Of a stretch of 64,000 nucleotides of DNA, positions 1,103-23,367 are shown piece after piece. The stretch spans positions 7,083,036 through 7,147,035 of the forward strand of contig CM077833.1 of NCBI GenBank assembly GCA_039720395.1. The letters run 5' to 3'. Source of the stretch: Liquidambar formosana (Eukaryota > Streptophyta > Magnoliopsida > Saxifragales > Altingiaceae). Within the stretch, counting starts at the first letter, position 1, and each line of letters begins with the position of its first letter. The translations under genes and the position numbers were made by a program. Below the pieces are notes generated by a model. The model ran no database searches. It was not told the origin of the DNA and saw nothing but the letters and a program-made list of their open reading frames with translations.

Positions 1103-1818
1103 CTCGCTGTCACACCCCATTTTTGCACCACCTTACTAGGGCTCATCATTTCATGCATGTTTTTTTTTTTTTTTTTGAGTCTAGTCACTTGCATTAGTTT
1201 TCTAGAGTCACAAGGACAATGGATATGAATTTTGGTTTAATTCGGAGTTGATCTTGAGGGATAATAAGAGCTTTTGTGACTTGAGGGGCATAATCGTCTT
1301 TTAGTCCCAAACTTTTCATTTGACCTTGAAATGATCTCCAAATTGTCAATTGGAGTTCATATGGATGCATTAAAGGTATTTCTAGGTTCAATTTGATGAA
1401 TCAATGGCTCGGGATTAAAATGGCTCAATACAGTTCAAGATTGCTTAATTGACCCTTCTTTGGGTTAGCTCTAATTGACTCACAATTACTAACCAAATCT
1501 TTTCAAATTGACTTTCATTAGTCATCATTTTACCTCCAAAAGTGTTTTATAAAGTTCAATTTTGATATGGAAAGTGTTTGGTTTGACCCTATGTGCATGC
1601 CTATGCTTAGCAAAGGTAGAGCATAGTGGTTAATCGCCTTGTTCAAACCTAACCATGCCCCCATGGTTAGTGGTTTTCACCCTAAAATGTTCAAAAACAT
1701 ATTCCTCATCGAAACACGGTCGTTTTGGATTTTGTTTCATCAAAATCGGAGTTCATTTGGCCCCTGAAACACTTCTAGAAGCATTGAGAGTCAAAATAGG
1801 AGAAAAATCCGAAGTGGG

Positions 1819-1899
1819 CTTGGGTGACCACCAAGCCTCGGGCAGCTAGCCGCCTGGGCCCTAGGTGGCTAGCCGCCCAGGCCCTGGTGGTCACCCAAG
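1819..1899. repeat. GC-rich palindromic cassette, copy 1 (5' LTR)
   Basis: The 14-bp outer arms CTTGGGTGACCACC (1819-1832) and GGTGGTCACCCAAG (1886-1899) are perfect inverted repeats. Between them lie two palindromes centred on GCTAGC. Diverged flanks (ATAGGA on the left, TCCTAT on the right) extend the symmetry. It lies about 200 bp upstream of the LTR TATA box. Related copies are at 11228, 14190 and 17099. Confidence 0.9.
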
Positions 1900-2097
1900 A
1901 CCACTTTCCTATTTGCACTATGTTTCCTTGCTGAAGCGGATTCCTCCCTATTTTGACGTACAAGGGCTCTTTTGGACGGGTTTCCTTCTAATTTTTGGTA
2001 ACTTCTGAGTTACTTAAGCCCCAAGGGGGTCTCTAATAGCCCTTGGATTAATTTTTAGGGTTTTAATCCTAGCCATTGGTTAATCCTACTGAAACTC

Positions 2098-2105
2098 TAT
2101 AAATA
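2098..2105 (+). promoter_or_regulatory. TATA box of the LTR promoter
   Basis: TATAAATA in the context 'ctctataaataccccc', repeated exactly in the 3' LTR at 17377-17384. Its spacing and unique position make it the likely RNA polymerase II core promoter for genomic RNA. Confidence 0.7.
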
Positions 2106-3387
2106 CCCCCCTATGCTTCAGCACAAGGGGAGCCACCTTATGCATTAATACTTGAGTGTTTGAGAGAGAATAAGAGAGAGAGACTTGAAGGAGAGCTGGA
2201 GTTCTTGCTGTAGCCTTGAAGAACATTGATTGAAGACATCCACCAGAGCAAGAGGGAGTTCATACAACAGCAAGGAAGGCTCTTTCTAAGGTATTCCTCT
2301 TTTCTGTTCAAGCTTAAATAAAGGTATCATGTAGGAATAGCTCTATTGCATGTAATGCTTGTAATTTCTACCATGAATTGAGGTTTCTATTAGTTAATAC
2401 ATGTGATATTGATGATGTTCATGATGAGTTTTGCATGCTTTAGAGTTAGTTCATAGGTCTTAATGCATAGGTGTGATTCTTGTGCTCCTGTTGTCCCTGT
2501 GCTAGGATTAGTGTTATTGCATGTTAGTCTTAGGGTTTCTTATCATGTTTTATTGCTTTAGTTAGTTAATATGCATGATTTAGGTTCTGTTTAGGTTTAT
2601 TTTAGTATGTGTGAAGTTGGTTTTGTATGTTTTTGAGCATATTTGTGAGTTTAGGGTTTTAGAGTCCTTGTTTTATGTTAGTTTTCATACAGCATGATAA
2701 AGTAGGTCTTTTTATTGGTTTTTCTTCCTGTTTGCTGTATATGTTTTTTATATGGAGTAAATATGATATTTTTGCATGCATGTTAGTTGATTTCTAGGGT
2801 TTTATGCATGATATAGTTCTAGGAATATGTTAGGACTTATTATTGTTCGCTGTTTTTGCTGTTAGCATACTTAGTGGATGATTTTAGGCCTTAGTACTAT
2901 TCTGTCCAGATTTGCATGTTAGTGTTTTTGCATGATTTTGAGCACGTGTAAGGGTGCAAATAGGTGTGGTATTAGTTCTATGGCAAATAGGGCTGCCAAT
3001 GTCTGAAATAGCTAATGCTTGGAGTAATTGCGCTCAGGTAAGTGGGTGTGAAGGTGCCCCAATTCACCTCTCTTCCGTATCCCTTCTCTTATCCCTCTCT
3101 AGGGTTAATTTTTAATATGATCCTATGGTTTAATTAGAGGTTTCCTTCACAAATAAATTCTGGTTTTTATTAAAGTTTCCATTTTGTGGAGTTCTTTCTA
3201 AAATCAAACTTTCTATTAAATTCAACTCTTTTGATCAAATAAGGAAACCTAGGGTTTTTACCATAGGTTTATATTAAGTCTTAACCCTAGTTCTAATCGA
3301 ACTACGTGGACTTTGATCCATGTATTTCGTTGCATGGTACGTAGGCGCTCTTCGTGAGGCTCAAGTCCGTTCTAGGATCCAAGCATC

Positions 3388-5917
3388 ATAAGCACTTGCT
3401 GCCCGTGTATCATAAGCACTTATTTGCCCACTATTTCCCCAATTTCAAAGCTCTCATTGGGGCTGGCACGCAGGTTGAAGATGCTATCAATGATGGGACA
3501 ATCAAAACTGAGGAAGTGAGGAGTCGCAAGACAAACTTTACTGGGAAGAACAATGCCGAGGTCAACACCATAACTCAACCCATCCAACCTTTCTCTCTCA
3601 ATGATGTCAACCCACCTCGCCATTTCACCGACCTATTCATGCCACTCGAAAGGGTCCTTGAAAAGCTCATGAGCCGTGACCTATTGAAGCCACTCGACCC
3701 AAAACCTCCACCAAATCCCTTACCCAAGAACTACAACGAGAATGAGTACTGCAAGTACCACCAATCCAAAGGCCATGCCACCAATCGTTGTATTCGCCTT
3801 CGCCATCAAGTCCAAGACCTCATTGACAAATAAGTCATCTCACCACCAACCCGTCCAAATGTCACCCGTAATCCTCTCCCATCTCACAACAACACACCCC
3901 CACCTAACACCATAAATGCCATTGGGTTTGAATCCTCACGCCCTCGCCGTCCCATAAGACAATACACTCCACTCCCCATGACCTTAACCCGTCTTTTCAC
4001 CATTTGCCGCAATAACAGCCTTATCATGCCACTTCCACCAAAGCCAAGGCCATCAACCCCTCACCAATATTGCCAATACCATCGTGCACCCGGCCATGAC
4101 ACCGAGGCTTGTTCTATACTAAAGAAGATCGTTCAAGACCTCATTGACCAAAAGGTTTTGTTGTTGCCAAAGAAATCTATCCAACAAGAGCTAAAGGAAA
4201 GATATGAAGCAGGGGATCCTCAGGTTGGCCTATTAGGTGAATCGTCAGGGAAAGTTGATTACTATGTGCTGTACTCAAGCCCAAGTCCAATATCAGATGA
4301 GCCAATAGTCCCTACAGGTTGGGATGACTTGCCGACAGAAATGGAGAGCATTGACATGATAGAGTGGGATGACTTAATGAATGACTCCGAGGAAGTCCAT
4401 GATATATGGGCTAGTGATGATGAGTTAGACCATATAACCAGAGGGGGTTGTCATTTCAAGCCTCCCCACCTAGAATCTGAGAATCCAATGGAAGATTTGG
4501 AAGGGCAGAGGCGTCCTAGCTTGCAAGAAGAAGAGGATGAGGTGCTTAGGTAGCTGAAGAAGACCAATGCCAACATCACTATTTGGGGCTTGCTCATGGC
4601 CTCGCACAAGCACAGACAGACCGTGTTAAAACTGCTGAATCAGATACAAGTGCCCGTTGACACATCCCCCGAGGGACTGGTACATTTGGTGAATCCAATT
4701 CCCAAGAACTCAACCATCGTGTTCACCGATGTGGACCTACCCAAAAGCAGGCCAAGCCATTCTCAAGCTCTCTATGTGACCGTTGACACTATAGGGAAGA
4801 GGGTACCTACCGTCCTTATCGACAATGGGTCTGCACTGAATGTATGCCCTCTCAGAATTGCCACTGTCTTGGGTTTGGGACCCACCGATTTCACGCCATC
4901 TGGGCAGACTGTAAAAGCCTATGACAACACCCGCTGAGAAGTAATAGGGGTGGTTACTTTGCCTCTTATCATGGGACCCTTTGAATTTAGGGTGGAATTC
5001 TAAGTGTTGGATGTGCCGTCATGTTTCAACTTGCTGTTGGGCCAACCTTGGATCCATCCTGCTGGGGCTGTGCCGTCTTCACTCCATCAAAAGGTGAAGT
5101 TTCCTTACAAAGGGGCCATAGTAACACTTCAAGGGGACTATGAATTGAAACTCGCAGGCGTGCCTATATGTGAGATACAACCAGAATCAGCGGCGGTGCC
5201 ATTATCCGGGTTTGACTATGTCCAATGCATTGAGAAAGAACTTGAGAAGGGTGAGTTAATACCCTTGGACTTTTGCCCCTATGGCAATTTGCACGTCGGT
5301 GAAATAATGAGAAAAATGAGTTTCTTTCCAGGCATGGGGCTAGGGCGTCGCCAACAGAGGATCCCTAAGTTTATTCAGAGCCGTGTCACCTCATACACCT
5401 TCGGGCTAGGATATGAGCCCTCCAGAAATGATCGTGCAGAAATGTTGAAGAGGAATAAAGAGAAAGTAAGAGCCAAAGCCGAGGGAAGGGTGCTAGACCT
5501 GAGAATCTCGCCATACCGACCTACTTTGAATGGTTACTTCGTCAAATAGGGGGATAATTTTCTATATTGCGGGTTTCCAGAACCCACCTTTGACCAATCT
5601 ACCAAGATCCGAGTTCCGGGTTTTGAAATTTTCTTCACCGAATGGTATCCAATCACAGCTGAAATGGTAGATGATGAAGCCATCAATGATGAGTTCTGGG
5701 AAAAGAAAGAAGAAGACTGGGCAGAGAACCTTGATGCAGGGGTTATGGCTGAAATGTTCCAAGATATGATCCTCACCGTGGAAGACTCGACCATTGAAGG
5801 ACTCCAGCATTCGTCCATTAGCCATGCTACCATGCCACTCCTGAATTGGTACCTTGAATGTGGTGTCATTGCGGAGCTCCATGAAGAAGAAGACCTTGGC
5901 CTACCTGATAGTAGCTT
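3388..5917 (+). pseudogene. gag-pro of the Tat element (decayed, N-terminus deleted)
   Basis: One reading frame runs through the region, interrupted by stops at 3831, 4551, 4935, 5001 and 5547. Two zinc-knuckle-like motifs of the type C-x2-H-x4-H-x4-C lie near 3750 and 4070, each followed by a similar QDLID segment, so the knuckle region looks duplicated. The protease has the active-site motif DNGSALN near 4821 and the downstream LLLGQPW motif near 5030. A glycine-rich GMGLGRRQQ segment near 5335 resembles the G-patch that follows protease in many plant Ty3 elements. The usual gag N-terminal domain is missing because of the 5' deletion. Identification as gag-pro is firm; non-function follows from the stops and deletion. 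Confidence 0.88.
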
Positions 5918-6078
5918 GTAGGTGTCTTAGTTTAGTAATATTTCCCTAATTTAATAAGATTTATCTACTCAATTCTCTTTGTGGATTCATGGTATTGATA
6001 CAGATTTGTTTGTTTTCTTTCTTCTTTTGTGTGTCATTCCTACTCAATAAAGTGTGTTTTCTTTCTCTATATATGCAG
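5918..6078 (+). other. probable intron between gag-pro and pol
   Basis: Gag-pro and pol are in different frames. A donor GTAGGT at 5918 and an acceptor ATATGCAG ending at 6078 bound 161 bp with a pyrimidine-rich 3' half. Joining 5917 to 6079 puts the two frames into register (phase 2 into codon position 3) and removes the stop at 5919. A spliced intron at this place is known for Ogre elements of the same lineage. The donor fits less well than the acceptor. Confidence 0.65.
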
Positions 6079-9000
6079 TGTCTCTTTTCTCTCCTCTATG
6101 GATATTTATGGTATGGATATAGATCCTAGGAACGATGTCCCTCCGGAACTCGTTGAGCAAAGGAAAAGGGGCGTCACCGAACCTAATATGGATGAATTGG
6201 AATCAATCAACTTAGGGACGAATGAATTGCCAAGAATAGTTAAAATTGGGAAAACCCTCTCCCCTATTGAAACAGAAAAGATGATCTCTCTCTTGAAAGC
6301 CAACATTATGGCTTTTGCATGGTCTTATGAAGACATGCCTGACATTGACCCCGATATTGTGCAACACTATATCCCCACTAATTCCCTAAAGAAGCCGATA
6401 AAGCAGAAACTCAGAAGATTAAAACCAGAATGGGCTCTAAAAGTAAAATAAGAGGTAACTAAACAACTAGACGCGGGTTTCCTCCAAGTTGTGGAGTACC
6501 CCGAGTGGTTGTCGAATATAGTGCCTGTGCCTAAAAAAGATGGAAAAGTGAGAATGTGTGTCGACTTCCAAGATCTCAACGCCACAAGCCCCAAGGATGA
6601 CTTTCCTTTACCCCATATCGACGTGTTGGTAGATAGCACAGTGGGGCATGCACTCCTCTCCTTCATGGACGGATTCTCCGGGTATAACCAGATAAAGATG
6701 GCGCCTCAAGACATGGAGAAAACAGCCTTTATCACGCAATGGGGAACGTACTGTTACAAGGTAATGCATTTTGGCTTAAGAAACGCTGGGGCTACTTACC
6801 AAAGAGCAACAACGACCTTATTGCATGATATGATCCATAAAGAAGTCGAGGTTTATGTCGATGATATGATCGTGAAGTCCGTGGATAGGGAAGGGCATTT
6901 CAAGGCGCTAGAGAAATTCCTAGAGCGAGCAAAGAAGTACAATCTCCGTCTAAACCCACAGAAGTGTGCTTTTGGTGTCACTGCAGGCAAGCTATTGGGA
7001 TTCATGATCACTCAGAGGGGAATCGAAGTGGACCCAGGGAAGATAAAAGCTATTGTGGAGATGGAGCCGCCTAGCACTGAGAAGCAGATCCGGGGTTTTC
7101 TGGGAAGGGTTCAATACATAGGCCGATTCATCGCCAACTTGACCATGATTTGTGAACCAATCTTCAAATTGCTTAAAAAAGGTGTGCCAAGAGTATGGAA
7201 TGAAGAATGCCAAGAGGCCTTTGAGACCATTAAGAGATACTTGAGCAATCCCCCAATCTTAGTTTCCCCACGGCAAGGTGCACCGCTCTTGTTATACTTA
7301 ACGGTCACCGAAACCGCGATGGGAGCTATGTTAGCTCAATATCTCGAAGGGTCTACAAAGGAGAATGCCATCTACTACCTAAGCAAGAAAATGACGGACT
7401 ATGAAGTGAAGTACAATGCCATTGAAAAGGCTTGTGTGGCACTAGTATGGGCGACGCAAAAGCTCCGGCACTACATGATGTCATTTGAAGTGTTCTTGAT
7501 AAGTCGCATGGACCCGTTGAAGTACCTGGTAGAAAGGCCGGTATTGTCATTCAGAACTGCTCGATGGTCAATTCTCCTCAATGAATTCGACATCAAGTAC
7601 GTAAATCAGAAGTCTATCAAGGGAAGCGTCATTGCAGACTACCTAGCTAGTTGTCCTGTGTCATCATCCGCTCCGTTCAACGATCAATTCCCAGATGAGG
7701 ACGTGCTAGAGATTGGTAGAAAAACTTGGAGTGTATACTTCGATGGGGCAGCCAATAAGAAAGGTTATGGGATAGGAGTCCTGCTGGTCTCACCTGAAGA
7801 GGCATTTACACCGTTGGCGGTCAAGTTGGGGTTTGAAGCTACCAACAACATTGCTGAGTATGAGGTCTGTATCTTAGCATTAGAAGTGGCACTTGAATTG
7901 GGGATCAAAGAATTGGAAGTGTTCAGGGACTCAGCGCTAATCATTTGTCAGATAAAAGGGGAATGGAAAACTTGAGATGAGAAGTTGCTGCCCTACCATG
8001 CCTACCTGTAAGCTCTAACTAAGGAGTTCTCAGAAATAGAGTTCAACTACTTGTCAAGAAACAAGAACTAGTTCGCCGATGCCTTGGCGACCCTAGCGTC
8101 CATGGTGGAGATACCTGAAGGAGGAAATGTGAAGCCGTTGGTAATAGAATGCCGAGACAAGCCTGTGTACTGTTGTGCAATCCGAGGAGGGGAGGTGATT
8201 GATGGCCACCCGTGGTTCCATGACATAAAGAAGTTCATTGAAGAAAGGGAGTACCCAGAAGGAGCATCTCGTATCGACAGAAAAACCCTAAGGCGGTTGG
8301 CGAGTCACTATGCACTTTGTGGAGGAAAGCTATATCGGAGATCATACGATGGGGTCCACCTGCTGTGTGTCACCGAGGAGGAAGCCGAGCATCTGATTAA
8401 AGAAATCCATGAAGGGACAGGGGCTCCGCATATGAATGGCTATATGTTGGCTAAGAAGATCATGAGGTTAGGCTATTATTGGTCTACTATGGAAAGGGAC
8501 TGCCACGCACATGTCAAGAAGTGCCACAAATGCCAACTGTTCGCTAGTGGACAACATCTGCCTTCTATGCCTTTAACAAGTATGTCGTCACCATGGCCAT
8601 TCGCAGTATGGGGGACAGATATCATTGGACAGATCAAGCCAAAGGCGTCAAATGGGCATGAATACATCCTGGTTGCCATCGATTATTTCACTAAGTGGGT
8701 GGAAGCAGCGTCCTTCAAGACCTTGAATTCCAAGAAGGTAGCACAGTTCATACAGCACAGCATCATCTATCGATATGGGGTACCGCATGAAGTTATCTCA
8801 GACAATGGCCAGCACTTTCAGAAAGAAACCCATGAGTTCTTGCAAAAGTATGGCATAGTTCATCACCTGTCGTCACCATACCGTACTCAGACTAATGGAG
8901 CAGTGGAAGCGGCTAACAAGAACATCAAGAAGATACTGCAGAAGACTGCGGACTCACACACAGACTGGCATGAGAAGTTACCGTTAGCTCTATGGGGTTA

Positions 9001-9457
9001 CAGAACATCAATAAGGTCGTCAACAGGGGCTACCCCTTACTCTCTAGTTTATGGAATGGAGGCCGTATTGCCAGTTGAATTAGAGGTTCCTTCACTAAGG
9101 GTTGTCGTGGAGAGCCAGATAACAGAAGTGGACTGGGTTAAGAGCCATTATGATGAGTTAGCTTTGCTCGATGAAAGGCGGTTAAGGGCGCTGTATCATG
9201 TGCAGGGGTATCAGCGGAGAGTTGCTAGAGCATTCAACAAGCATGTCAAAGATCGAGGTCTAAAGAAAGGGGATGTAGTGCTGAAAGAAATCAGAGCTCC
9301 AGTGTTCGATCCGCGGGGAAAATTCAAGCCAAGTTGGGGTGGACCATACATTATCAAAGAAATATTGCCAGCAGGGGCTGTTCGCCTCATGGATTTAGAT
9401 GGAATTGAGTTCGCTCATCCAACTAATTTGGATCAATTAAAGAAATATCATGTTTGA
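6079..9457 (+). pseudogene. pol (RT, RNase H, second RNase H, integrase), decayed
   Basis: A single frame with stops at 6449, 7973, 8009 and 8069. Reverse transcriptase spans roughly 6490-7100, with VPKKDGK, DLN, FGLRNAG and the catalytic YVDDM at 6854-6868. The first RNase H follows to about 7640. A second RNase H begins at about 7727 (WSVYFDGAANKKG, later NNIAEYE) and is cut by the stop at 7973. Integrase occupies 8230-9457, with the HHCC zinc site around 8430-8535 (CHAHVKKCHKC), the three catalytic acids in GTDIIG, SDNGQ and GAVEAA, and a C-terminal chromatin-proximal domain. The second RNase H places it in the Tat lineage. The stops make translation as Pol impossible here. Confidence 0.93.
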
Positions 9458-9537
9458 AGCCTGTTAGGTTGAAAACCCGTAAGGGCGACCTAGGCAAAAG
9501 TTAAGGCATAAGAACTACGTAAGACCTGATTCTCCAT

Positions 9538-9625
9538 TCAAAACAAAACAAAAAACAAAAACAAAAACAAAAACAAAAACAAAAACAAAAACAAAACCAA
9601 AAAAAAAAAGCAAAAAAAGAAAAAA
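9538..9625 (+). repeat. (AAAAC)n microsatellite
   Basis: About twelve AAAAC-type units followed by an A-rich run, just downstream of the integrase stop. The next 180 bases, up to the end of the antisense ORF at 9810, show no gene. Confidence 0.85.
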
Positions 9626-9809
9626 ATCATGGAGATACGTAGGCAACCTATAAAGTTAGCTTGGGTGCGGTCTAAATCAAACAACAAAATCCCAAATTTG
9701 GTTTATTATTGGCAATTTATTCAAAACTAAAATTGATTGACATAGCAATTTATTGGTATTAAGGAAAAGAACTATAAAAGTGCCATAAATATCCTATTCT
9801 ATTGAGTCT

Positions 9810-11084
9810 TCAATTTTTCCTGGGCTTCTTTGCAGCTTCCTTCTTCTCTCTTTCATGTCTTCTTTTCTTCCTCAAGTCGTGTTCATAAGCTGCTGTCACT
9901 GCTTCCATAATATCTTCTCTGCAAGGTCCAAGTCCATTATTCTTGATAAGTCCAAAAATCCTTTCTCTTCGAGTAGTCTCTCGCTCACCCAAATTGCTTT
10001 TCAACCACTCCTTATACTCGGGGCTCATCATATATGGACCATCAGTATTCGTAACTTGAGTCAGTGTCAACTTGCTAGGCCATCGATCCTTCGCCTAAGT
10101 CACTACAGAAAGACCTACAGGCACCACAGGATAGTCACCTCTGAAAGAAGTCGGTATGGTTTGCATGGCACCCATTTAACGAAGAACCCTTGAAGGCCAA
10201 TAAAAGGAAGTAGACCTCAGTCCTATGAGTCTCACCATTGTGCATCCAGAAGTTCGTAGAAGCACCTGTTCACTGCAGCCCTATATGAGGACAAACCACT
10301 TTATAGTCTTCCATGAAAGGGTTTGGAAGTAACCTAGCCAATCCCTTAATGAGAACTTTCCAGGCAACTCAATGTAGCGAAGGCAGTAATGCTGGGGCTT
10401 GTATGGTGTAATGACAGTGGGTGACAAGAAATTCAGCCTTTCAAGCAACCACATTTGCAGTAGAATGCGGCTACCTCCTAAAGGAACCTTTGGGTCCTCA
10501 TGAGCTTTATCCAAGCTATTTAGGGTTTCAGCTAGTACCATGGGAATCAAGTTATGGCCCTTGGCAAGGAGAGGAATCAACTCACAAATTTGTATGGGAA
10601 CATGTAAAGTACCAGTGGAAATAAGGAAACAACCAATAAGGCAAAAGGCAAGAGCATGCTTAATAGGAAAGGTAAATTTCAGAATACCTTTACTATTATA
10701 GGCCAAAAAAGAGGTTGCCAATTTCATCAAGTCTACCATATGGTCCTTTACAAACGTAGAGGCATATTGTTGGTGAATCCCAAATAGGTTGGAAAAAGAA
10801 GTAAGAAAGCTCGGGCGAAGAGTAGGGAGAATGAAAGGACCTACCGGTGAAACTCCATACAACGCGCAGAATTCCTCCATGGTTGGGCACAGTTCTTCAT
10901 AGTTGAAGCGGAACACATGAATTTGGGGATCCCAAAAATATGTAGCAGCAGTCAAGAGGTTCGTTTCAAGCCTCACATGCCTCAAGGAAAGCAATGGATC
11001 CAAGCCAAAGCACTTGAACTCAGATTTTGCTTCAGCACTCATAACTCTCAAAAACCCCCCTAAAAATTTGTCTAGAGCCTCCAT
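9810..11084 (-). pseudogene. antisense DUF7745-like ORF inside the Tat element
   Basis: Read on the - strand, one frame of 425 codons starts with ATG at 11084 and ends at 9810. It is broken by three in-frame stops around 10281, 10180 and 10098. Residues 1-265 hold LTAATYFWDP, then HVFRFNYEELCPTMEEF and a leucine-rich remainder. This pattern resembles plant DUF7745/plant-mobile-domain-like proteins found in and around plant transposons. The C-terminus is highly charged and lysine-rich (KKRRHEREKK), possibly a nuclear signal or coiled coil. It has its own TATA box and palindromic cassette upstream, so it looks like an independent transcription unit. The family assignment rests on motif memory alone. 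Confidence 0.65.
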
Positions 11085-11132
11085 AATTTCTAATGAATGA
11101 ATACAAGTAGGTTTAGGAACCTCTTGGATGTG

Positions 11133-11140
11133 TTTTTATA
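11133..11140 (-). promoter_or_regulatory. TATA box of the antisense DUF7745-like ORF
   Basis: On the - strand the sequence reads CCCTATAAAAACAC, about 50 bases before the ATG at 11084. It lies about 90 bases inside the palindromic cassette copy 2. No other TATA-like site is seen in this short promoter. Confidence 0.6.
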
Positions 11141-11227
11141 GGGAAAAGGTCACAAATCCAAGTTCAAATAGGAAAAAACCCATCAAAATAGGAAGTTTCC
11201 TATTCAAAGTGGGATTTCCGCTTCGGG

Positions 11228-11307
11228 CTCGGGTGACCACCCAGGCCTGGGCGGCTAGCCACCTGGGCTTGGGCGGCTAGCCGCCTAGCCCCGGGTGGTC
11301 ACCCGAG
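11228..11307. repeat. GC-rich palindromic cassette, copy 2
   Basis: Arms CTCGGGTGACCACCC (11228-11242) and GGGTGGTCACCCGAG (11293-11307) pair perfectly over 15 bp. Compared with copy 1, one base pair in the arm is changed on both sides (T-A to C-G). Two GCTAGC palindromes lie between the arms. It sits upstream of the antisense DUF7745-like ORF. Confidence 0.9.
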
Positions 11308-11519
11308 GCCGTTTTCCTATTTTGCCCAGTTTTGCCTATTTTTGACCTAATTTGACCCCTATATGGTTATGAGCTTGTTTTTGCACAAAAACATGAGTAA
11401 ATCACCATCATGGAACTCCAAAAGTCTCATAAAAAGTACCAAAGCAAATGTTCAGAGAGAGATTACAAAGCATAAAGAAAGATGTTTCATTCGGTTACAA
11501 AACAAGAGGTTAAGCTAAT

Positions 11520-13902
11520 CTAATGATCTCCCGTGGTTCTTCTCTTTCTACTTGACTCGCCTCTACCACGACCAGCATGAGGATTCCTTTGGGGTGGCAT
11601 TGGTTGTGGTGGATGCAGTGTCGAGACCTGTTGCAAAGAAATCAATTAATAAAGAAGGGTTATGCCTTTAACTCCTAGGATTGGAATGAACAAAGGGAAT
11701 GTCTTACAATGGGATTCAGTCGTCCTTCTAGCACAGAGTTCGCCAAACTCATCCTAACAAGGTCCTGCCTTAATCCCTCGCTGAGTTCAAGGCACTCCTG
11801 TGCGTACTCTCGGGGAACCTAAAAGATGAACATGGTTAATAAATGATGAAAGAGGTTTTCAGGAAAGCAAAAGGCTTAGAGCTTACATGCTCATAGCTCG
11901 GGTCAATCCTGGGGACTTCATCAAAAGCAGGATGAGTAATATTAGTCTTCATGAACTCCAACCCATTGCATAGGTTCACTTGCCAGTCGAGTACTGGGAG
12001 AGGTGGCTGTGCCATTCCCCCTATCTCATAATCCTCATCCCCATGAGTCATGCCTGTGGAGGACGCTATTGTGGAACTATGTCCACGAGCTCGCCGGCCC
12101 TGCAATAGATAATTTGTTTAAGAGGAGTGCTTGTATAAATCAATAATTGAAAAAAATGGGATAGAAACTCACCCCTTGAGGCGGGAAGCCAATGACTCTA
12201 GGGCGCATCAGGAATTGGTTGCAGAAAGTCATGTAGTCGGTATTGGGCGAGGTGAACTCCTCAGCATCCCATCCAATCAGAGCTTCCATCAGCTCATCCC
12301 CATCCAGAGAGTCAGTGTGCCTCATATTCATGGGAGGCAAGACAGGGGTAAGAGCGGCATCCACTCGTCCTTTCACCTGCCTAAGGACGCGCTCCCCTAA
12401 ATACCAGTCTGTCAAAATTCAAGAAAAGCATTAAAATCAAGTCAAGTTTGAGAGGAATTTAAAAATTAACATTTTTACTTACCTCCCAAACAAATGGGAG
12501 CCCACCAAAATTCTTGGAAACACCTCGAGAAATGTCGGACATGGATCTATACATAGTAGCTAGTGTTGCCCCTCCCCAGTTATACCTCCCCATTTTGTTC
12601 ACATCTACCATGGAAGCAAGGTAGCCCAGTTGCGCCATGTCATTGGCACCAACAAAGAGAGTGCAGGAGAGCATATAGATCATGAAAGCCCTAGCAATGC
12701 ACTCGGGAGCCACTCCCACACCTTCTACTTGGTTGGCAAAATTCTCAAATAGCCATGTCTTCCTAACACCGCGGGAACCCGCCTCAATATCCATCCCCAA
12801 CATAGTGAGGAGATAAGCGCTATCCGTGTTGGCATCCCCATAGAATTCCAACCTCTTTCCTTTGAGGCTTAAACCGGTGATGATTGAGAAATCCTTGGGA
12901 GTCATGGTCATCTCCCCAAAACTGAAGTGGAAGGTGTTGGTGGTATCCCACCATAATTCGGCTAAGGCAAGGAGGGCTTGCCTATCCCACTGTTCATTCC
13001 ATAGGGAGTCAAGAAACCAACCAAAACCTGCTTTCTTAATGGATTCTCTTGCGGAAGGTTGGGTGTGTTCCATATGCTTCCACCACCCAATAAGATTTTT
13101 TATCGAAGACCTTGTGCGTAGGTCTTGGAAGTTGGGCTAATCAAGAAGAATGATTCACCTAGTTAGTGTAAAAAAATCATATGCAAGCATTGATAATTGG
13201 CTTTTCAAAAGCTAAGTCTTTTAGTTCATGAACAAGTAAACCATGCTTTGAAAGTTTATGAAAACATTGGTTTCATTCTTCAAACTCATGATCATTGGTA
13301 AACCATGCATTCCAATACCATGGAAACATGGATTTTTCAAAGGAAATAGCAAGCAAACCTTGTTTTCCAAAGTGGTTTTTTGAGGAAAAAATAAGCAAAC
13401 CTTGTTCATGAAAACATTGGTTTTTTCAAAAATATAGCAAACTTTGTTTTTCAAAGTTCATGAAAATGCTTGGTTTGGTTTCTAAAATCAATTAGAAATG
13501 AATGCCTATGATTTTACCTTGCAATGCACATCAATTTTACAAAAATTGGATGAATTTTCATCACTCAAGCATTTTATCAAACACTTGGTGGGCACTATTC
13601 ACCAAGCTTTCAAATTGAATTCTTTTCACATCCAATCCTTGCCAAAATCAATGGGCATTGCAAACATTGCTAGGAATACTCATAGAGAGTTCATGAGAAT
13701 GCATTTCAATTAACAAAAATGAAAATTTCAAAGAAAAGTTTAAAATGGGTAAGCTTACCTCTTGCTTGGAATGGATAAAGGAGAGATGATTCCTTGGTTC
13801 TAGGAGCAATTTGCCTTGAGGAACATCATATATTGGTGCCTTGTATCTACTCTTTGAGTCAAGGAATGGATACTTTGAAGTGGAGTCTTTATTTGGATCC
13901 AT
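11520..13902 (-). CDS. antisense six-exon plant mobile domain (PMD) gene
   Basis: Exons on the - strand: 13902-13759, 13136-12483, 12408-12173, 12099-11887, 11818-11708 and 11627-11520 (stop TAG). All introns have GT-AG ends with good donors (GTAAGC, GTAAGT, GTGAGT, GTAAGC, GTAAGA). Exon 2 holds the PMD signature: ALAELWWDTTNTFHFSFGEM, then MTPKDFSIITGL and YNWGGATLATMYR. The C-terminus is basic (GRGRGESSRKRR), a possible nuclear signal. PMD proteins (MAIN/MAIL1 family) act in plant silencing, and PMD genes are known inside MULE and gypsy elements. Four junctions are phase 0. The exon 2-3 junction is off by one base unless a second donor 4 nt downstream is used. Exon frames are otherwise open, in contrast to gag-pol. 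Function here is unknown. Confidence 0.8.
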
Positions 13903-14189
13903 GGTGGATGAACTAGCTTGTTTTGAGCAAAAATGGGTTTAATGGGTTTTTGATTTGCAAAGTGCTGCAAATTTCTTGTTTTTGATGTGAAATTGGGTGC
14001 TAATGATGCTATTTCATGTGTATGAATCCCTCTTGAAGTGTGGATTTGAATGCCTTTGGGTGTTGAAGTGATTTTGCAAAATGGGGTAAGCTTTCTAGAG
14101 AGAGAAACTCCAATTTTCGGGTTCTTTGAACAAGGGGTATGAATAGTGCCCTTGTGCACTTTAAAAAACCAGATTTTTCAGCAAATAGG

Positions 14190-14270
14190 CTCGGGTGACC
14201 ACCCAAGCCCTGGGCGGCTAGCCACCAGGGCCTGGGCGGCTAGCCTCCTGAGGCCTGGTGGTCACCCAAG
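14190..14270. repeat. GC-rich palindromic cassette, copy 3
   Basis: Arms CTCGGGTGACCACC (14190-14203) and GGTGGTCACCCAAG (14257-14270) flank the same two GCTAGC-centred palindromes. One arm position is unpaired. It lies about 290 bp upstream of the PMD start codon, in that gene's promoter region. Confidence 0.88.
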
Positions 14271-14548
14271 CCACCTTGTTTTGGCTTTCTCTCTCGCTTT
14301 AACGCGTGATCAAACCTTCTTCCAAATGAGATATTCAATACTTTTTGAGCTTAAAATCAATCAAATTTCACCTTGAAATCAATTCTTTGAATTGATTTTA
14401 TGTTCAAAAGGGTTGAATATATTTCCCCTGTGCCATGCCAACTCAAGTGACAATGTGTTAAGTCACTTTCCTCTTGCACCATGCTTGTTCTATCTTGATA
14501 AATTGATCATATATCTTCATTTCAAATCTTGATTTTCCATCCCACTTG

Positions 14549-16240
14549 GTTGAATATATTCATCACTTGAATATGTTCTTCCATTTCAAAAGTGTATTCA
14601 CCTTTTGAATATGCTTCTCAGTTTCAAATCCTCATTCTTTATCCTACTTGGTTGAATATATTCATCACTTGGATATATTCTTCCATTTCAAAAGTGTATT
14701 CACCCTTTGAATATGCTTCTCAGTTCCAAATCCTCATTATCTATCTTACTTGGTCAAATATATTCATCACTTAGATATATTTTTCCATTTCAATGGTATG
14801 TTCATCACTTGAACATACTTGTCAATTACTTGGTTAAATATATCCATCGCTTGGATATATTTCTCCATTTCAATGGTATGTTCATCACTTGAACATACTT
14901 GTCAATTACTTGGTTAAGTATATCCATCGCTTGGATATATTTCTCCATTTCAATGGTATGTTCATCACTTGAACATACTTGTCACTTACTTGGTTAAGTA
15001 TATCCATCGCTTGGATATATTTCTCTATTTCAATGGTATGTTCATCACTTGAACATACTTTTCACTTACTTGGTTAAATATATCCATCGCTTGGATATAT
15101 TTCTCCATTTCAAAGGTATGCTCATCACTTGAGTATACCTCTCAGATCATTTGTCACTTACTTGGTTAAATATATTCATCACTTGAATATATTTCTCCAT
15201 TTCAATGGTGTACTCATCACTTGAGTACACTTCTCAGATCATTTGTCAATTACTTGGTTAAATATATCCGTCGCTTGGATATATTTCTCCATTTCAATGG
15301 TATGTTCATCACTTGAACATACTTGTCACTCACTTGGTTAAATATATCCATCGCTTGGATATATTTCTCTATTTCAATGGTATGTTCATTACTTGAACAT
15401 ACTTGTCACTTACTTGGTTAAATATATTCATCACTTGAATATATTTCTCCATTTCAATGGTGTACTCATCACTTGAGTACACTTCTCAGATCATTTGTCA
15501 ATTACTTGGTTAAATATATCCATCGCTTGGATATATTTCTCCATTTCAATGGTATGTTCATCACTTGAACATACTTGTCACTTACTTGGTTAAATATATC
15601 CATCGCTTGGATATATTTCTCCATTTCAATGGTGTGTTCATCACTTGAACATACTTGTCACTCACTTGGTTAAATATATCCATCACTTGGATATATTTCT
15701 CCATTTCAATGGTATGTTCATCACTTGAACATACTTGTCACTTACTTGGTTAAATATATCCATCGCTTGGATATATTTCTCCATTTCAATGGTATACTCA
15801 TCACTTGAGTATACCTCTCGGATCATTTGTCAATTACTTGGTTAAATATATTCGTGAACTGAATATATTTCTCCATTTCAATGGTGTACTCATCACTTGA
15901 GTATACTTCTCAGTCTCTTTCAATCACTTGGTTAAATATATTCGTGACCTGAATATATTTCTCCATTTCAAAAGTGTACTCATCACTTGAGTATACTTGT
16001 CAGTCTCTTTTCACTACTTAGTTAAATATATTCGTGACCTGAATATATTTCTCCATTTCAAAAGTATACTCATCACTTGAGTACACTTCTCAGATTTCAT
16101 TCTCAATCACTTGGTTAAATATATTCATGACTTGAATATATCTTTCCATTTCAAAAGTATGTTCATTCGTAGTGGCTTGAATATGCTTCTCTTGTCAACT
16201 CTCAACCCCCAGTGGTTTAAGTATACTCATGACTTGAGTA
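14549..16240 (+). repeat. tandem array of 80-bp units, each with two hairpins
   Basis: The core unit is 80 bp (starts at 14829, 14909, 14989) and longer variants carry a 'cagatcatttg' insert. Each unit has two perfect or near-perfect hairpins with 9-bp arms and a 5-nt loop (TCACT or TCGCT). One is built on ATATATCCA and the other on GTATGTTCA. Arm variants change on both sides together. The left end (14549-14760) and right end (15840-16240) are more diverged. Open frames across it are repeat artefacts. Tandem arrays in the 3' untranslated region are known for Tat/Ogre-type elements. Confidence 0.93.
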
Positions 16241-16368
16241 CACTTCCTTATTCCAGTCTCAGGTTTTCAACCTCCCATCATTGTTTGGTTACAGTGTGTG
16301 ATTTCTCCAGGCTTTTTGGCAAAAATGGGTTGTTCTTTATCATTGGTTCACAAGTGTAACTTGTTCGC

Positions 16369-16382
16369 CAATGAGGGGCTTC
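16369..16382 (+). promoter_or_regulatory. polypurine tract candidate
   Basis: The purine-rich 'aatgagggg' ends a few bases before the 3' LTR start at 16383, where plus-strand DNA synthesis would be primed. The last five bases (GCTTC) are not purines, so it is imperfect. Confidence 0.45.
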
Positions 16383-19105
16383 TGTCACACCCCATTTTTG
16401 CACCACCTTACTAGGGCTCATCATTTCATGCATGTTTTTTTTTTTTTTTTTTTTTGAGTCTAGTCACTTGCATTAGTTTTCTAGAGTCACAAGGACAATG
16501 GATATGAATTTTGGTTCAATTCGGAGTTGATCTTGAGGGATAATAAGAGCTTTTGTGACTTGAGGGGCATAATCGTCTTTTAAGTCCCAAACTTTTCATT
16601 TGACCTTGAAATGATCTCCAAATTGTCAATTGGAGTTCATATGGATGCATAAGAGGTATTTCTAGGTTCAATTTGATGAATCAATGGCTCGGGATTAAAA
16701 TGGCTCAATACAGTTCAAGATTGGTTAATTGACCCTTCTTTGGGTTAGCTCTAATTGACTCACAATTACCAACCAAATCTTTTCAAATTGACTTTCATTA
16801 GTCATCATTTTACCCCCAAAAGTGTTTTATAAAGTTCAATTTTGATATGGAAAGTGTTTAGTTTGACCCTATGTGCATGCTTATGCTTAGCAAAGGTAGA
16901 GCATAGTGGTTAATCGCCTTGTTCAAACCTAACCATGCCCCCATGGTTAGTGGTTTTCACCCTAAAATGTTCAAAAACATATTCCTCATCAAAACACGGT
17001 CGTTTTGGCTTTTGTTTCATCAAAATCGGAGTTTATTTGGCCCTTGAAACACTTCTAGAAGCATTGAGAGTCAAAATAGGAGAAAAATCCGAAGTGGGCT
17101 TGGGTGACCACCCAGCCCCGGGTGGCTAGCCGCCTGGGCCCAGGTGGCTAGCCGCCCAGGCCCTGGTGGTTACCCAAGACCACTTTCCTATTTGCACTAT
17201 GTTTCCTTGCTGAAGCGGATTCCTCCCTATTTTGACGTACAAGGGCTCTTTTGGACGGGTTTCCTTCTAATTTTTGGTAACTTCTGAGTTACTTAAGCCC
17301 CAAGGGGGTCTCTAATAGCCCTTGAATTAATTTTTAGGGTTTTAATCCTAGCCATTGGTTAATCCTACTGAAACTCTATAAATACCCCCCTATGCTTCAG
17401 CACAAGGGGAGCCACCTTATGCATTAATACTTGAGTGTTTGAGAGAGAATAAGAGAGAGAGACTTGAAGGAGAGCTGGAGTTCTTGCTGTAGCCTTGAAG
17501 AACATTGATTGAAGACATCCACCAGAGCAAGAGGGAGTTCATACAGCAGCAAGGAAGGCTCTTTCTAAGGTATTCCTCTTTTCTGTTCAAGCTTAAACAA
17601 AGGTATCATGTAGGAATAGCTCTATTGCATGTAATGCTTGTAATTTCTACCATGAATTGAGGTTTCTATTAGTTAATACATGTGATATTGATGATGTTCA
17701 TGATGAGTTTTGCATGCTTTAGAGTTAGTTCATAGGTCTTAATGCATAGGTGTGATTCTTGTGCTCCTGTTGTCCCTGTGCTAGGATTAGTGTTATTGCA
17801 TGTTAGTCTTAGGGTTTCTTATCATGTTTTATTGCTTTAGTTAGTTAATATGCATGATTTAGGTTCTGTTTAGGTTTATTTTAGTATGTGTGAAGTTGGT
17901 TTTGTATGTTTTTGAGCATATTTGTGAGTTTAGGGTTTTAGAGTCCTTGTTTTATGTTAGTTTTCATACAGCATGATAAAGTAGGTCTTTTTATTGGTTT
18001 TTCTTCCTGTTTGCTGTATATGTTTTTCATATAGAGTAAATATGATATTTTTGCATGCATGTTAGTTGATTTCTAGGGTTTTATGCATGATATGGTTCTA
18101 GGAATATGTTAGGACTTATTATTGTTTGCTGTTTTTGCTGTTAGCATACTTAGTGGATGATTTTAGGCCTTAGTACTATTCTGTCTAGATTTGCATGTTA
18201 GTGTTTTTGCATGATTTTGAGCACGTGTAAGGGTGCAAATAGGTGTGGTATTAGTTCTATGGCAAATAGGGCTGCCAATGTCTGAAATAGCTAATGCTTG
18301 GAGTAATTGCGCTCAGGTAAGTGGGTGTGAAGGTGCCCCAATTCACCTCTCTTCCTTATCCCTTCTCTTCTCCCTCTCTAGGGTTAATTTTTAATATGAT
18401 CCTATGGTTTAATTAGAGGTTTCCTTCACAAATAAATTCTGGTTTTTATTAAAGTTTCCATTTTGTGGAGTTCTTTCTAAAATCAAACTTTCTATTAAAT
18501 TCAACTCTTTTGATCAAATAAGGAAACCTAGGGTTTTTACCATAGGTTTATATTAAGTCTTAACCCTAGTTCTAATCGAACTACGTGGACTTTGATCCAT
18601 GTATTTCGTTGCATGGTACGTAGGCGCTCTTCGTGAGGCTCAAGTCCGTTCTAGGATCCAAGCATCCTAGGCTTCTTTTTGTTTTGTTTTGTTTTTCTTT
18701 ATTTTCTGTTTTTATGTGTTTGTTATGCATGGATGGATGAATGAAATATATGATATGCATGCTATCTTATGATGATATACTTGCTGATTTTTGTGTGGGA
18801 AAGATCTTGATTTAGCCCAAATAAACTGAGAGACCGAAAGGGTGACATGGGTGCCTATAGGCTTTGCCTAGAACCTTCCCATGTCATAACTTAGCCTCCG
18901 AATCCCCGATTTCTTTGGTTTCCAAAAGACTGTTTTTTGCCTTTCCTTTTTAAACATGGAGTCATTCAAATTGTTTTCCTAAAACAAACTATTTTTAGGG
19001 TTTTCCTTGTTTCCTTTAAAAAATAAGGTGGCGACTCCTTTTTTGTTTTCAAAACCCAATCTCTCTCTTTTCAATCCCTCGTGGGCCCGATTTCTGGGGT
19101 TCACA
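16383..19105 (+). repeat. 3' LTR of the Tat element, full length
   Basis: A 2723-bp LTR from TGTCACACC to TTCACA with the TG...CA ends expected of LTRs. The palindromic cassette copy 4 is at 17099-17178 (one arm mismatch, TTACC), and the TATA box is at 17377-17384. The final 439 bp (18667-19105) have no counterpart in the deleted 5' LTR. They include a U-rich stretch after 18667 and 'tcgtgggcccgatttctggggttcaca' at the end. It is immediately followed by the target duplication CTCGC. Confidence 0.95.
17099..17178. repeat. GC-rich palindromic cassette, copy 4 (3' LTR)
   Basis: Left arm CTTGGGTGACCACC (17099-17112) and right arm GGTGGTTACCCAAG (17165-17178), with one mismatch, around two GCTAGC palindromes. 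It is in the same LTR position as copy 1. Confidence 0.88.
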
Positions 19106-19154
19106 CTCGCTTGTAAGCTGGATGACAAGAATGAAGGAGAAGCAAGGTTTGGTG

Positions 19155-20303
19155 GATCTGATACATGAATTTGGTAGACGACGAGAACGAAGGAGATGAA
19201 AGGTTTGGTGGATCCGAGATATGAATTTAGTTAAGTTAAAAGGGTATTATGGGAATTTACTATTTTTGGGTATGAGATTCCTGATCCAACCAAATGCTGG
19301 AATGGGAATATTAGGGGAGTATCACACTTTCCATTACCACAAACCAAACATGGGAATGGTCACATTCCCTTACATTCCCATTCCCAAGTAATGGATCTGA
19401 GATGGTTCAAAGTGAATTATAAAATAAAGGAATGCTGGAAACATTTGTTGGATTGGAGGAAGACGAACAACTTGAACTCAAGGCAGAAAATCATTAACCT
19501 CCAAGAACAATTAAAAGAGAAAAATTCAAAAGTTCCTTATGATAGTTGTCGAACAAAGTAGGCTGAACATGAGCTTCATAAAGCCTGGAGGGAGGAGGAA
19601 ACCTATTGGAAGACAAAATCTAGAACTAGGTGGCTAAAATTAGGGGACAAAAACACTGCATTCTTCCATGCTTCTACTATACAGAGGCGACAACAGAATA
19701 AATTGGTTGGGTTGGAAGACAAAAATGGGATCTGATACATGAATTTGGTAGACGACGAGAACGAAGGAGATGAAAGGTTTGGTGGATCCGAGATATGAAT
19801 TTAGTTAAGTTAAAAGGGTATTATGGGAATTACAATTTTTGGGTATGAGATTCCTGATCCAACCAAATGCTGGAATGGGAATATTAGGGGAGTATCACAC
19901 TTTCCATTACCACAAACCAAACATGGGAATGGTCACATTCCCTTACATTCCCATTCCCAAGTAATGGATCTAAGATGGTTCAAAGTGAATTATAAAATAA
20001 AGGAATGCTGGAAACATTTGTTGGATTGGAGGAGGACGAACAACTTGAACTCAAGGCAGAAAATCATTAACCTCCAAGAACAATTAAAAGAGGAAAATTC
20101 AAAAGTTCCTTATGATAGTTGTTGAACAAAGTAGGCTGAACATGAGCTTCATAAAGCCTGGAGGGAGGAGGAAACCTATTGGAAGACAAAATCTAGAACT
20201 AGGTGGCTAAAATTGGGGGACAAAAACACTGCATTCTTCCATGCTTCTACTATACAGAGGCGACAATAGAATAAATTGGTTGGGTTGGAAGACAAAAATG
20301 GGA
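19155..20303 (+). repeat. 574-bp tandem duplication
   Basis: Unit 1 runs 19155-19728 and unit 2 runs 19729 to about 20303, with only a handful of substitutions. Each unit holds host sequence, the LINE target site AGTAATGG and the first 330 bases of the LINE. The duplication therefore post-dates the LINE insertion. Confidence 0.92.
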
Positions 20304-23300: not shown

Positions 23301-23367
23301 CCTTGATTTTGTAACCGGTTTTTTTACCTTAAATGAAGTATTTCTATCATTTGGAAAAAAAAAAAAA
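19395..23367 (+). mobile_element. 5'-truncated L1-type LINE with A-tail and target duplication
   Basis: LINE sequence begins at 19395 (again at 19968 in the duplicated copy) inside the region between endonuclease and reverse transcriptase. It ends in a 13-base A run at 23355-23367. The 8-bp sequence AGTAATGG precedes both 5' copies (19387-19394, 19960-19967) and follows the tail (23369-23376), as expected for target-primed insertion. The endonuclease is missing, as is common for truncated LINE copies. Confidence 0.88.
19968..23314 (+). pseudogene. LINE ORF2 remnant: reverse transcriptase, zinc domain, RNase H
   Basis: Reverse transcriptase spans about 20460-21475: FQIGPNKSLGPDG, LRPISLCNVSYKI, AFVPGRQI, LDMSKAYDR and the catalytic FADDS motif. 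An in-frame TGA lies at 21074, and the frame shifts near 21476. A zf-RVT-type cysteine region (CPFCGEDE, then HLF) lies near 22440-22500, after which a deletion breaks the frame. A type I RNase H (KLNVDGSW, EASTLREGL, VVESDAK) spans 22840-23230. RNase H at the C-terminus is typical of one branch of plant L1 elements. Stops and shifts make it inactive. Confidence 0.88.

What the first reader, a model, noticed from the sequence alone, without database searches (positions are those of the whole stretch)
11520..13902. A spliced, mostly open PMD gene on the antisense strand of a Tat retrotransposon
Five GT-AG introns with good consensus sites cut a plant-mobile-domain ORF running against the element's genomic RNA. 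Exon frames are open, while gag and pol in the same copy carry nine stops. The sense genomic RNA would contain the intron complements, so these introns survive retrotransposition only because they are antisense. PMD proteins act in plant silencing, so an element-borne PMD gene could modulate host silencing or be modulated by it. That role is inference.
Basis: partly seen in the sequence, partly recalled or inferred. Interest (0 to 1): 0.9.

Follow-up and report, generated by a model that had tools for sequence, protein, structure and literature searches.

The report
Retrotransposon with two antisense PMD genes
A worn-out plant jumping element (an LTR retrotransposon) carries, on the strand opposite its own genes, two genes of a protein family tied to gene silencing in Arabidopsis; one is cut by predicted introns that would be spliced only from the opposite-strand RNA, so the element likely keeps them when it copies itself, but in this copy both genes are broken.

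Summary
On the minus strand, 13902-11518, six exons and five GT-AG introns encode a plant mobile domain (PMD) protein (PF10536, E 2.8e-25), antisense to a Tat-clade Ty3/gypsy element (1108-19105). Liquidambar formosana relatives cross four of the five junctions at the same places. Corrections: (1) exons are open singly, but exons 2 and 3 do not join in frame; relatives have about 90 or more further residues there, so this copy has likely lost about two exons. (2) 'Open exons versus nine gag-pol stops' is right in count (0 of 487 codons against 9 of 1972) but not significant (P 0.08-0.11). (4) The 5' LTR is fused into the gag region, so this copy is dead. New: a ~90-bp hairpin with paired AGCCGCC boxes occurs in this window only in the LTRs and upstream of each antisense gene. 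PMDs in Gypsy elements and antisense ORFs in Tat elements are published; I found no description of a multi-intron antisense PMD gene, the two-gene set or the shared hairpin in ten paper searches. Expression and selection could not be tested.

The parts
1108..3393 (+). 5' LTR, truncated: lacks about the last 430 bp and is fused to the gag region; 5-bp target duplication CTCGC at 1103-1107
   Evidence: 98.5% match to the 3' LTR up to 3393; TG start at 1108; target duplication
16383..19105 (+). 3' LTR, 2723 bp, TG...CA; target duplication CTCGC at 19106-19110
3394..5918 (+). gag-protease-like frame, N-terminal part missing, with premature stops
   Evidence: stop-to-stop ORFs in one frame; no Pfam hit above cut-off, a sub-threshold G-patch in 5004-5546; the label gag is by eye
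5999..9457 (+). pol frame: RT, RNase H, second RNase H, integrase, with premature stops
   Evidence: PF00078 1.3e-25, PF17919 6e-25, PF17917 8.7e-21, PF13456 2.2e-7; PF00665 5.1e-15, PF17921 1.1e-7
13759..13902 (-). gene A exon 1 (from ATG)
   Evidence: P0002 99-154
12483..13136 (-). gene A exon 2, first half of the PMD
   Evidence: PF10536 2.8e-25, profile 16-169 of 347; P0001 94.6% over 202 residues
12409..12482 (-). gene A intron 2, likely a hybrid left by loss of about two exons
   Evidence: phase mismatch; extra part in P0006, P0014, P0015
12173..12408 (-). gene A exon 3 (end of the PMD, WYLGERV motif)
   Evidence: P0006 211-288, 97%
11887..12099 (-). gene A exon 4
   Evidence: P0006 290-360, 89%
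11708..11818 (-). gene A exon 5
   Evidence: P0006 360-397, 92%
11518..11627 (-). gene A exon 6 with stop codon, basic C terminus
   Evidence: P0006 397-431, 89%
9810..11084 (-). gene B: second antisense PMD/DUF7745 gene, no introns, three premature stops in this copy
   Evidence: PF10536 1.1e-12, PF24924 1.9e-8 on 10281-11084; P0007 aligns in one stretch of 428 codons, 90.7%; stops
11135..11140 (-). TATAAA upstream of gene B
9749..9754 (-). AATAAA downstream of gene B
1812..1906 (+). hairpin module in the 5' LTR, upstream of the LTR TATAAA (2098)
17092..17185 (+). hairpin module in the 3' LTR
14188..14277 (-). hairpin module upstream of gene A
11225..11322 (-). hairpin module upstream of gene B
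14520..16240 (.). tandem repeat array (units about 80, 90, 102 bp) between gene A and the 3' LTR

Best explanation
This is a broken copy of a Tat-clade (Ogre/Retand-type) LTR retrotransposon that carries, between pol and the 3' LTR and on the strand opposite gag-pol, two plant-mobile-domain genes, one of them split by introns that are predicted to be spliced only from the antisense transcript and would therefore be kept through retrotransposition. Shown: both genes have the PMD, fall into two separate clades, and have close relatives; four of five splice junctions are crossed by annotated relatives. Inferred: each gene would be transcribed from its own promoter, since a hairpin like that of the LTR, with paired AGCCGCC boxes pointing the way of the gene, lies upstream of each. 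Inferred: the genomic RNA carries only the complement of the introns, so the spliceosome would not remove them. Inferred, by analogy with MAIN and MAIL1: the proteins likely work in the nucleus as regulators of transcription or silencing that help the element. This copy itself cannot work: gene A lacks about two exons, gene B has three premature stops, gag-pol has nine, and the end of the 5' LTR with the primer binding site is gone.
For: PMD in both genes. Annotated L. formosana proteins cross junctions 1, 3, 4, 5. Shared exon 2 border in 10 of 11 relatives. T-rich introns. Gene B relatives P0007 and P0008 are continuous at 428 residues. Two clades, 100/100 support for each of the two groups. 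RT-RNase H-second RNase H-integrase order, the Ogre/Retand order in PMC6317226. Hairpins at the LTRs and upstream of both genes only, z -10.2, -6.3, -10.3; AGCCGCC 10 times in the window, 9 in modules, 1.08 expected. Precedents: antisense promoter of Grande gene23 as told in PMC7264820; spliced antisense HBZ of HTLV-1 (PMC1459196, abstract).
Against: No RNA evidence of any kind; the annotated relatives are gene models. No dN/dS: no DNA of other copies was reachable (searches found none; the genome search did not complete). Gene A has no TATAAA between its hairpin and its ATG and no AATAAA within 1.7 kb after its stop. The openness of gene A is not significant against gag-pol. The orientation of the AGCCGCC boxes rests on two internal modules, and the gene B module also has one opposite box. 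The profile comparison of the two families aligns 261 columns at E 0.0034 but with 9.6% probability.
Confidence: 0.62

Rival explanations
1. The antisense unit matters as RNA, not as protein: antisense PMD transcripts pair with the genomic RNA, or are themselves copied into double-stranded RNA, and feed small RNAs that limit the element.
For: 175 PHAS loci lie at PMD genes in tea, and their phasiRNAs target PMD genes in cis and trans (PMC10673657, passages); Camellia PMD proteins are among gene A's relatives; PMC7264820 proposes dsRNA from antisense transcripts.
Against: Conserved exon coding across relatives at 55-94% identity and exact junctions suggest that the protein is under constraint; whether the tea loci belong to this kind of element is untested.
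Confidence: 0.17
2. Relic: the PMD genes were once useful or merely captured and now ride along and decay neutrally.
For: In this copy both genes are broken; the gene A contrast with gag-pol is not significant.
Against: Gene B is intact in at least two relatives of 428 residues that are about 75% identical to each other; a single dead copy says little about the family.
Confidence: 0.16
3. An ordinary host PMD gene lies by chance in an unrelated retrotransposon, through nested insertion or capture in this one copy.
For: Introns are typical of a host gene; P0015 is annotated as a MAIN-LIKE 2-like protein.
Against: Three related L. formosana proteins lie on contigs of three different lengths, so the genes are multicopy; two PMD genes of different clades sit in tandem with LTR-type hairpins before each; PMC5418596 reports PMD clades found only in Gypsy elements.
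Confidence: 0.05

Closest known systems
[quoted passage not shown]
   Same: PMD genes inside Ty3/gypsy elements, spread among angiosperms
   Different: The passages do not mention antisense orientation, introns, or two PMD genes in one element; clade membership was not tested here
Ogre eORFs with plant mobile domain, 57% of Ogre elements (PMC6317226, passages seen)
   Same: PMD accessory ORF in a Tat-clade element with a second RNase H between RNase H and integrase
   Different: That survey counted uninterrupted ORFs of at least 250 codons; gene A has no exon that long, so it would be missed
Retand antisense ORFs with TRP28 (PMC11963269, parts 1-3 of 5 read)
   Same: Antisense genes between pol and the 3' LTR, with tandem repeats
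   Different: Domain is PMD, not TRP28; gene A has introns; the LTR here is 2723 bp against 315-1194 bp; PMD is not among the domains in the parts I read
Grande gene23 (as told in PMC7264820, passages; the original was not held)
   Same: Antisense accessory gene with its own promoter; the protein is nuclear
   Different: Not described there as a PMD gene or as spliced
HTLV-1 HBZ (PMC1459196, abstract and outline seen)
   Same: Spliced antisense gene of a retroelement, product regulates transcription
   Different: Starts in the 3' LTR, different protein (bZIP factor), animal retrovirus

Membership tests
Plant mobile domain family (PF10536) | Match above the Pfam gathering score | tested here: met
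   Gene A exons 1-2: 89.7 bits, gene B: 48.3 bits, cut-off 34.9; gene A covers only profile positions 16-169 of 347
Gypsy-specific PMD-A clades | Falls in PMD-A1 or PMD-A2 in a tree with reference members | not tested
   No reference members were at hand; the tree only shows two separate groups
Tat clade of Ty3/gypsy, Ogre/Retand part | Second RNase H between RNase H and integrase | tested here: met
   PF13456 follows RT and RNase H, integrase follows in the next ORF; rule from PMC6317226
Tat clade of Ty3/gypsy, Ogre/Retand part | Place in a reverse transcriptase tree | not tested
   No reference RT set was fetched
Retand lineage | Antisense TRP28 (PF04195), in 97% of clusters | tested here: not met
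   Not among hits at E up to 1 in the four antisense pieces scanned; other antisense ORFs were not scanned
Retand lineage | LTR length 315-1194 bp | tested here: not met
   3' LTR 2723 bp; range
Ogre lineage | PMD eORF (57% of elements) | tested here: met
   frequency; not exclusive
Ogre lineage | gag-protease and pol as two ORFs separated by a gap | tested here: inconclusive
   Different frames with 80 nt between them, but both parts carry stops
Ogre lineage | Primer binding site type | not testable with these tools
   The site is deleted in this copy
Expressed spliced antisense gene (HBZ-like behaviour) | Spliced antisense RNA | not testable with these tools
   No RNA data

The most novel reading that the evidence does not exclude
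The element runs an antisense two-gene control unit: copies of its own LTR hairpin, with paired GCC boxes, drive an intron-bearing PMD gene and an intronless PMD gene against the direction of the genome, and the PMD products act back on the same hairpin in the LTR to tune genomic transcription or shield it from silencing. The introns stay for ever because reverse transcription only ever sees their complement.
Probability: 0.13. Interest if true: 0.85.

Novelty: new variant of a known kind. Interest (0 to 1): 0.5.

Why it matters
Surveys of accessory genes in plant retrotransposons count uninterrupted ORFs (at least 250 codons in PMC6317226, at least 600 bp in PMC11963269), so multi-exon antisense genes would be missed or split. 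If this architecture is general, Tat elements carry a hidden intron-bearing gene class of the domain family that Arabidopsis uses in silencing. The open question of whether PMD passed from Gypsy elements to the host or the other way (left open in PMC5418596) then becomes testable by comparing intron positions, and so does the source of PMD phasiRNAs in tea.

Tried and rejected
Rejected: the acceptor at 13159 for intron 1, because exon 2 is then read out of its open frame. Rejected: the ORF 9810-10070 as a spliced last exon of gene B; P0007 runs through in one ungapped stretch with in-frame stops in the window. Rejected: reading P0024's match to gene B as proof of the same tandem pair elsewhere; it can be explained by the shared domain. 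Led nowhere: scans of viral contigs with the gene A and gene B alignments and of genome contigs with the gene B alignment only gave no confirmed relative; AlphaFold models of P0007 and P0015 had mean pLDDT 46.1 and 41.4, so no fold search was run; Rfam found nothing at gathering threshold. Ten paper searches were made; their listings and the passages read showed no multi-intron antisense PMD gene. Steinbauerova 2011 and Gomez-Orte 2013 are not held, so the absence claim covers only the open-licence papers searched.

Full report
What is there. The window holds an LTR retrotransposon at 1108-19105 flanked by the 5-bp target duplication CTCGC (1103-1107 and 19106-19110). The 3' LTR is 2723 bp; the 5' LTR matches it at 98.5% as far as 3393 and is there fused to the gag region, so the end of the LTR and the primer binding site are missing. 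LTR divergence is 29 of 2285 aligned positions, K2P 0.0128, about 0.5 million years at a recalled rate of 1.3e-8 per site and year. Pol has RT, RNase H, a second RNase H and integrase, the order that PMC6317226 gives for Ogre and Retand. No RT tree was built. LTR length, the PMD genes and the frame change between gag and pol lean to Ogre; Retand LTRs range from 315 to 1194 bp, and Retand's antisense TRP28 domain was not found in the four antisense pieces scanned.

Gene A. Minus strand 13902-11518: exons of 144, 654, 236, 213, 111 and 110 nt, introns of 622, 74, 73, 68 and 80 nt, all GT-AG. The introns are T-rich on that strand, 0.37-0.45 against 0.16-0.27 in exons, as plant introns are (recalled). 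Exons 1-2 hit PF10536 at 2.8e-25; exons 3-6 alone hit nothing. The search with exons 1-2 gave 6 proteins, among them P0001 (94% over 74% of the query) and the L. formosana annotations P0002 and P0006; a search with P0006 gave 13, among them a third L. formosana protein, P0014, one from Rhododendron and six from Camellia. The window is therefore likely from Liquidambar or a near relative (inference). P0002 joins exon 1 to exon 2 where the window does, and P0006 runs through junctions 3, 4 and 5. At the border of exon 2, of 11 relatives examined, four read WE|V into what looks like intron, six annotated ones continue WE|[VIL]W.Y, and one lacked the motif; four of the six are from Camellia, and of the four, P0001 and P0003 still resemble the window's intron for a few residues.

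What is wrong with gene A in this copy. Exon 2 ends in phase 0, exon 3 is open only in another phase, and the joined frame stops after three codons. P0015 has about 93 residues between the two, P0014 about 116 including a stretch that looks like a small retained intron, and P0006, whose model is itself scrambled before this point, a comparable part. None of the 24 relatives places that part in gene A's region; P0024 places the corresponding half of the domain in gene B. The simplest reading, inferred, is a deletion from one intron into a later one that removed about two exons and left a 74-nt hybrid intron.

Gene B. A second antisense PMD gene lies just downstream, 11084-9810: PF10536 1.1e-12 and PF24924 1.9e-8 on its first ORF. 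Relatives P0007 and P0008 are continuous at 428 residues; P0007 aligns to the window in one stretch of 428 codons at 90.7%, with three premature stops in the window. A TATAAA at 11140 and an AATAAA at 9754 flank it, whereas gene A has neither hexamer close by. In a tree of 19 proteins the gene A group (5) and the gene B group (6) are each one side of a branch with 100/100 support against each other, so the pair is not a recent duplication. The profile comparison aligns the two families over 261 columns at E 0.0034 but with a probability of only 9.6%; the Pfam hits are the better evidence of a shared domain. Gene B has no intron where gene A has intron 2.

Stops. At the gag-pol rate 2.5 would be expected in gene A, P(0) 0.11, or 0.08 with gene B pooled: no significant contrast. 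Only 1.16 gag-pol stops are expected since insertion at the average LTR rate (P 3.7e-6). The parent was thus probably already defective and this copy moved in trans, unless the coding part mutates faster than the LTR, for example by methylation.

Hairpins. A module of about 90 bp that folds back on itself (z -10.2, -6.3 and -10.3 for the 5' LTR, gene A and gene B copies) lies at 1812-1906 and 17092-17185 in the LTRs, 14188-14277 upstream of gene A and 11225-11322 upstream of gene B, with no other match in the window at E 1e-6. Each has two AGCCGCC boxes in the direction of the unit that it precedes; the gene B module has a third, opposite one. AGCCGCC occurs 10 times in the window, 9 of them in modules, against 1.08 expected. 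That AGCCGCC is the GCC box of ERF factors is recalled. That the module is a promoter element is inference; a small foldback element that jumped three times is not excluded, though I saw no target duplication by eye.

Mechanism. The genomic RNA of the element contains the reverse complement of gene A, so its introns are not introns in that RNA and would pass through reverse transcription. This is strand logic, not an observation of RNA. HBZ of HTLV-1 shows that a retroelement can express a spliced antisense gene (PMC1459196, abstract). The product would likely be nuclear and regulatory: MAIN and MAIL1 act in silencing and gene expression (PMC5418596 and PMC7156037, passages), but these are PMD-C proteins, and the passages I read give no function for the Gypsy-encoded PMDs. 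In tea 175 PHAS loci lie at PMD genes (PMC10673657, passages), which is the basis of the main rival.

Known or new. PMD in Gypsy elements and antisense ORFs in Tat elements are published. The review PMC7264820 asks for a look at antisense and spliced transcripts. Within ten paper searches I found no description of a multi-intron antisense PMD gene, of an intron-bearing plus intronless PMD pair, or of LTR-type hairpins before antisense genes; two key papers are not held. I rate it a new variant of a known kind. The interest is moderate: the architecture is informative, but this copy is dead, and neither expression nor selection could be tested.

Noticed in passing
14520-16240: A 1.7-kb tandem array of 80-, 90- and 102-bp AT-rich units between the start of gene A and the 3' LTR; its units contain short inverted stretches.
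   Followed up: partly
19154-20124: A 573-574-bp direct duplication, 98-100% identical in the pieces matched, just outside the element's 3' end.
   Followed up: no
19823-23314: ORFs that look by eye like a non-LTR (LINE) reverse transcriptase and an RNase H, broken into several frames; not scanned.
   Followed up: no
5004-5546: A sub-threshold G-patch match (20.1 bits, cut-off 22) between the gag region and RT; PMC9289625 lists G-patch among domains found in plant Gypsy elements.
   Followed up: no
3345-9454: More premature stops in gag-pol (9) than LTR divergence predicts since insertion (1.16), which suggests mobilisation in trans of an already defective parent.
   Followed up: partly
P0013: A gene B relative is filed under the bacterium Modestobacter lapidis, probably plant DNA in a bacterial assembly.
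   Followed up: no
9540-9626: An A-rich (AAAACA)n run between the integrase stop and the 3' end of gene B.
   Followed up: no
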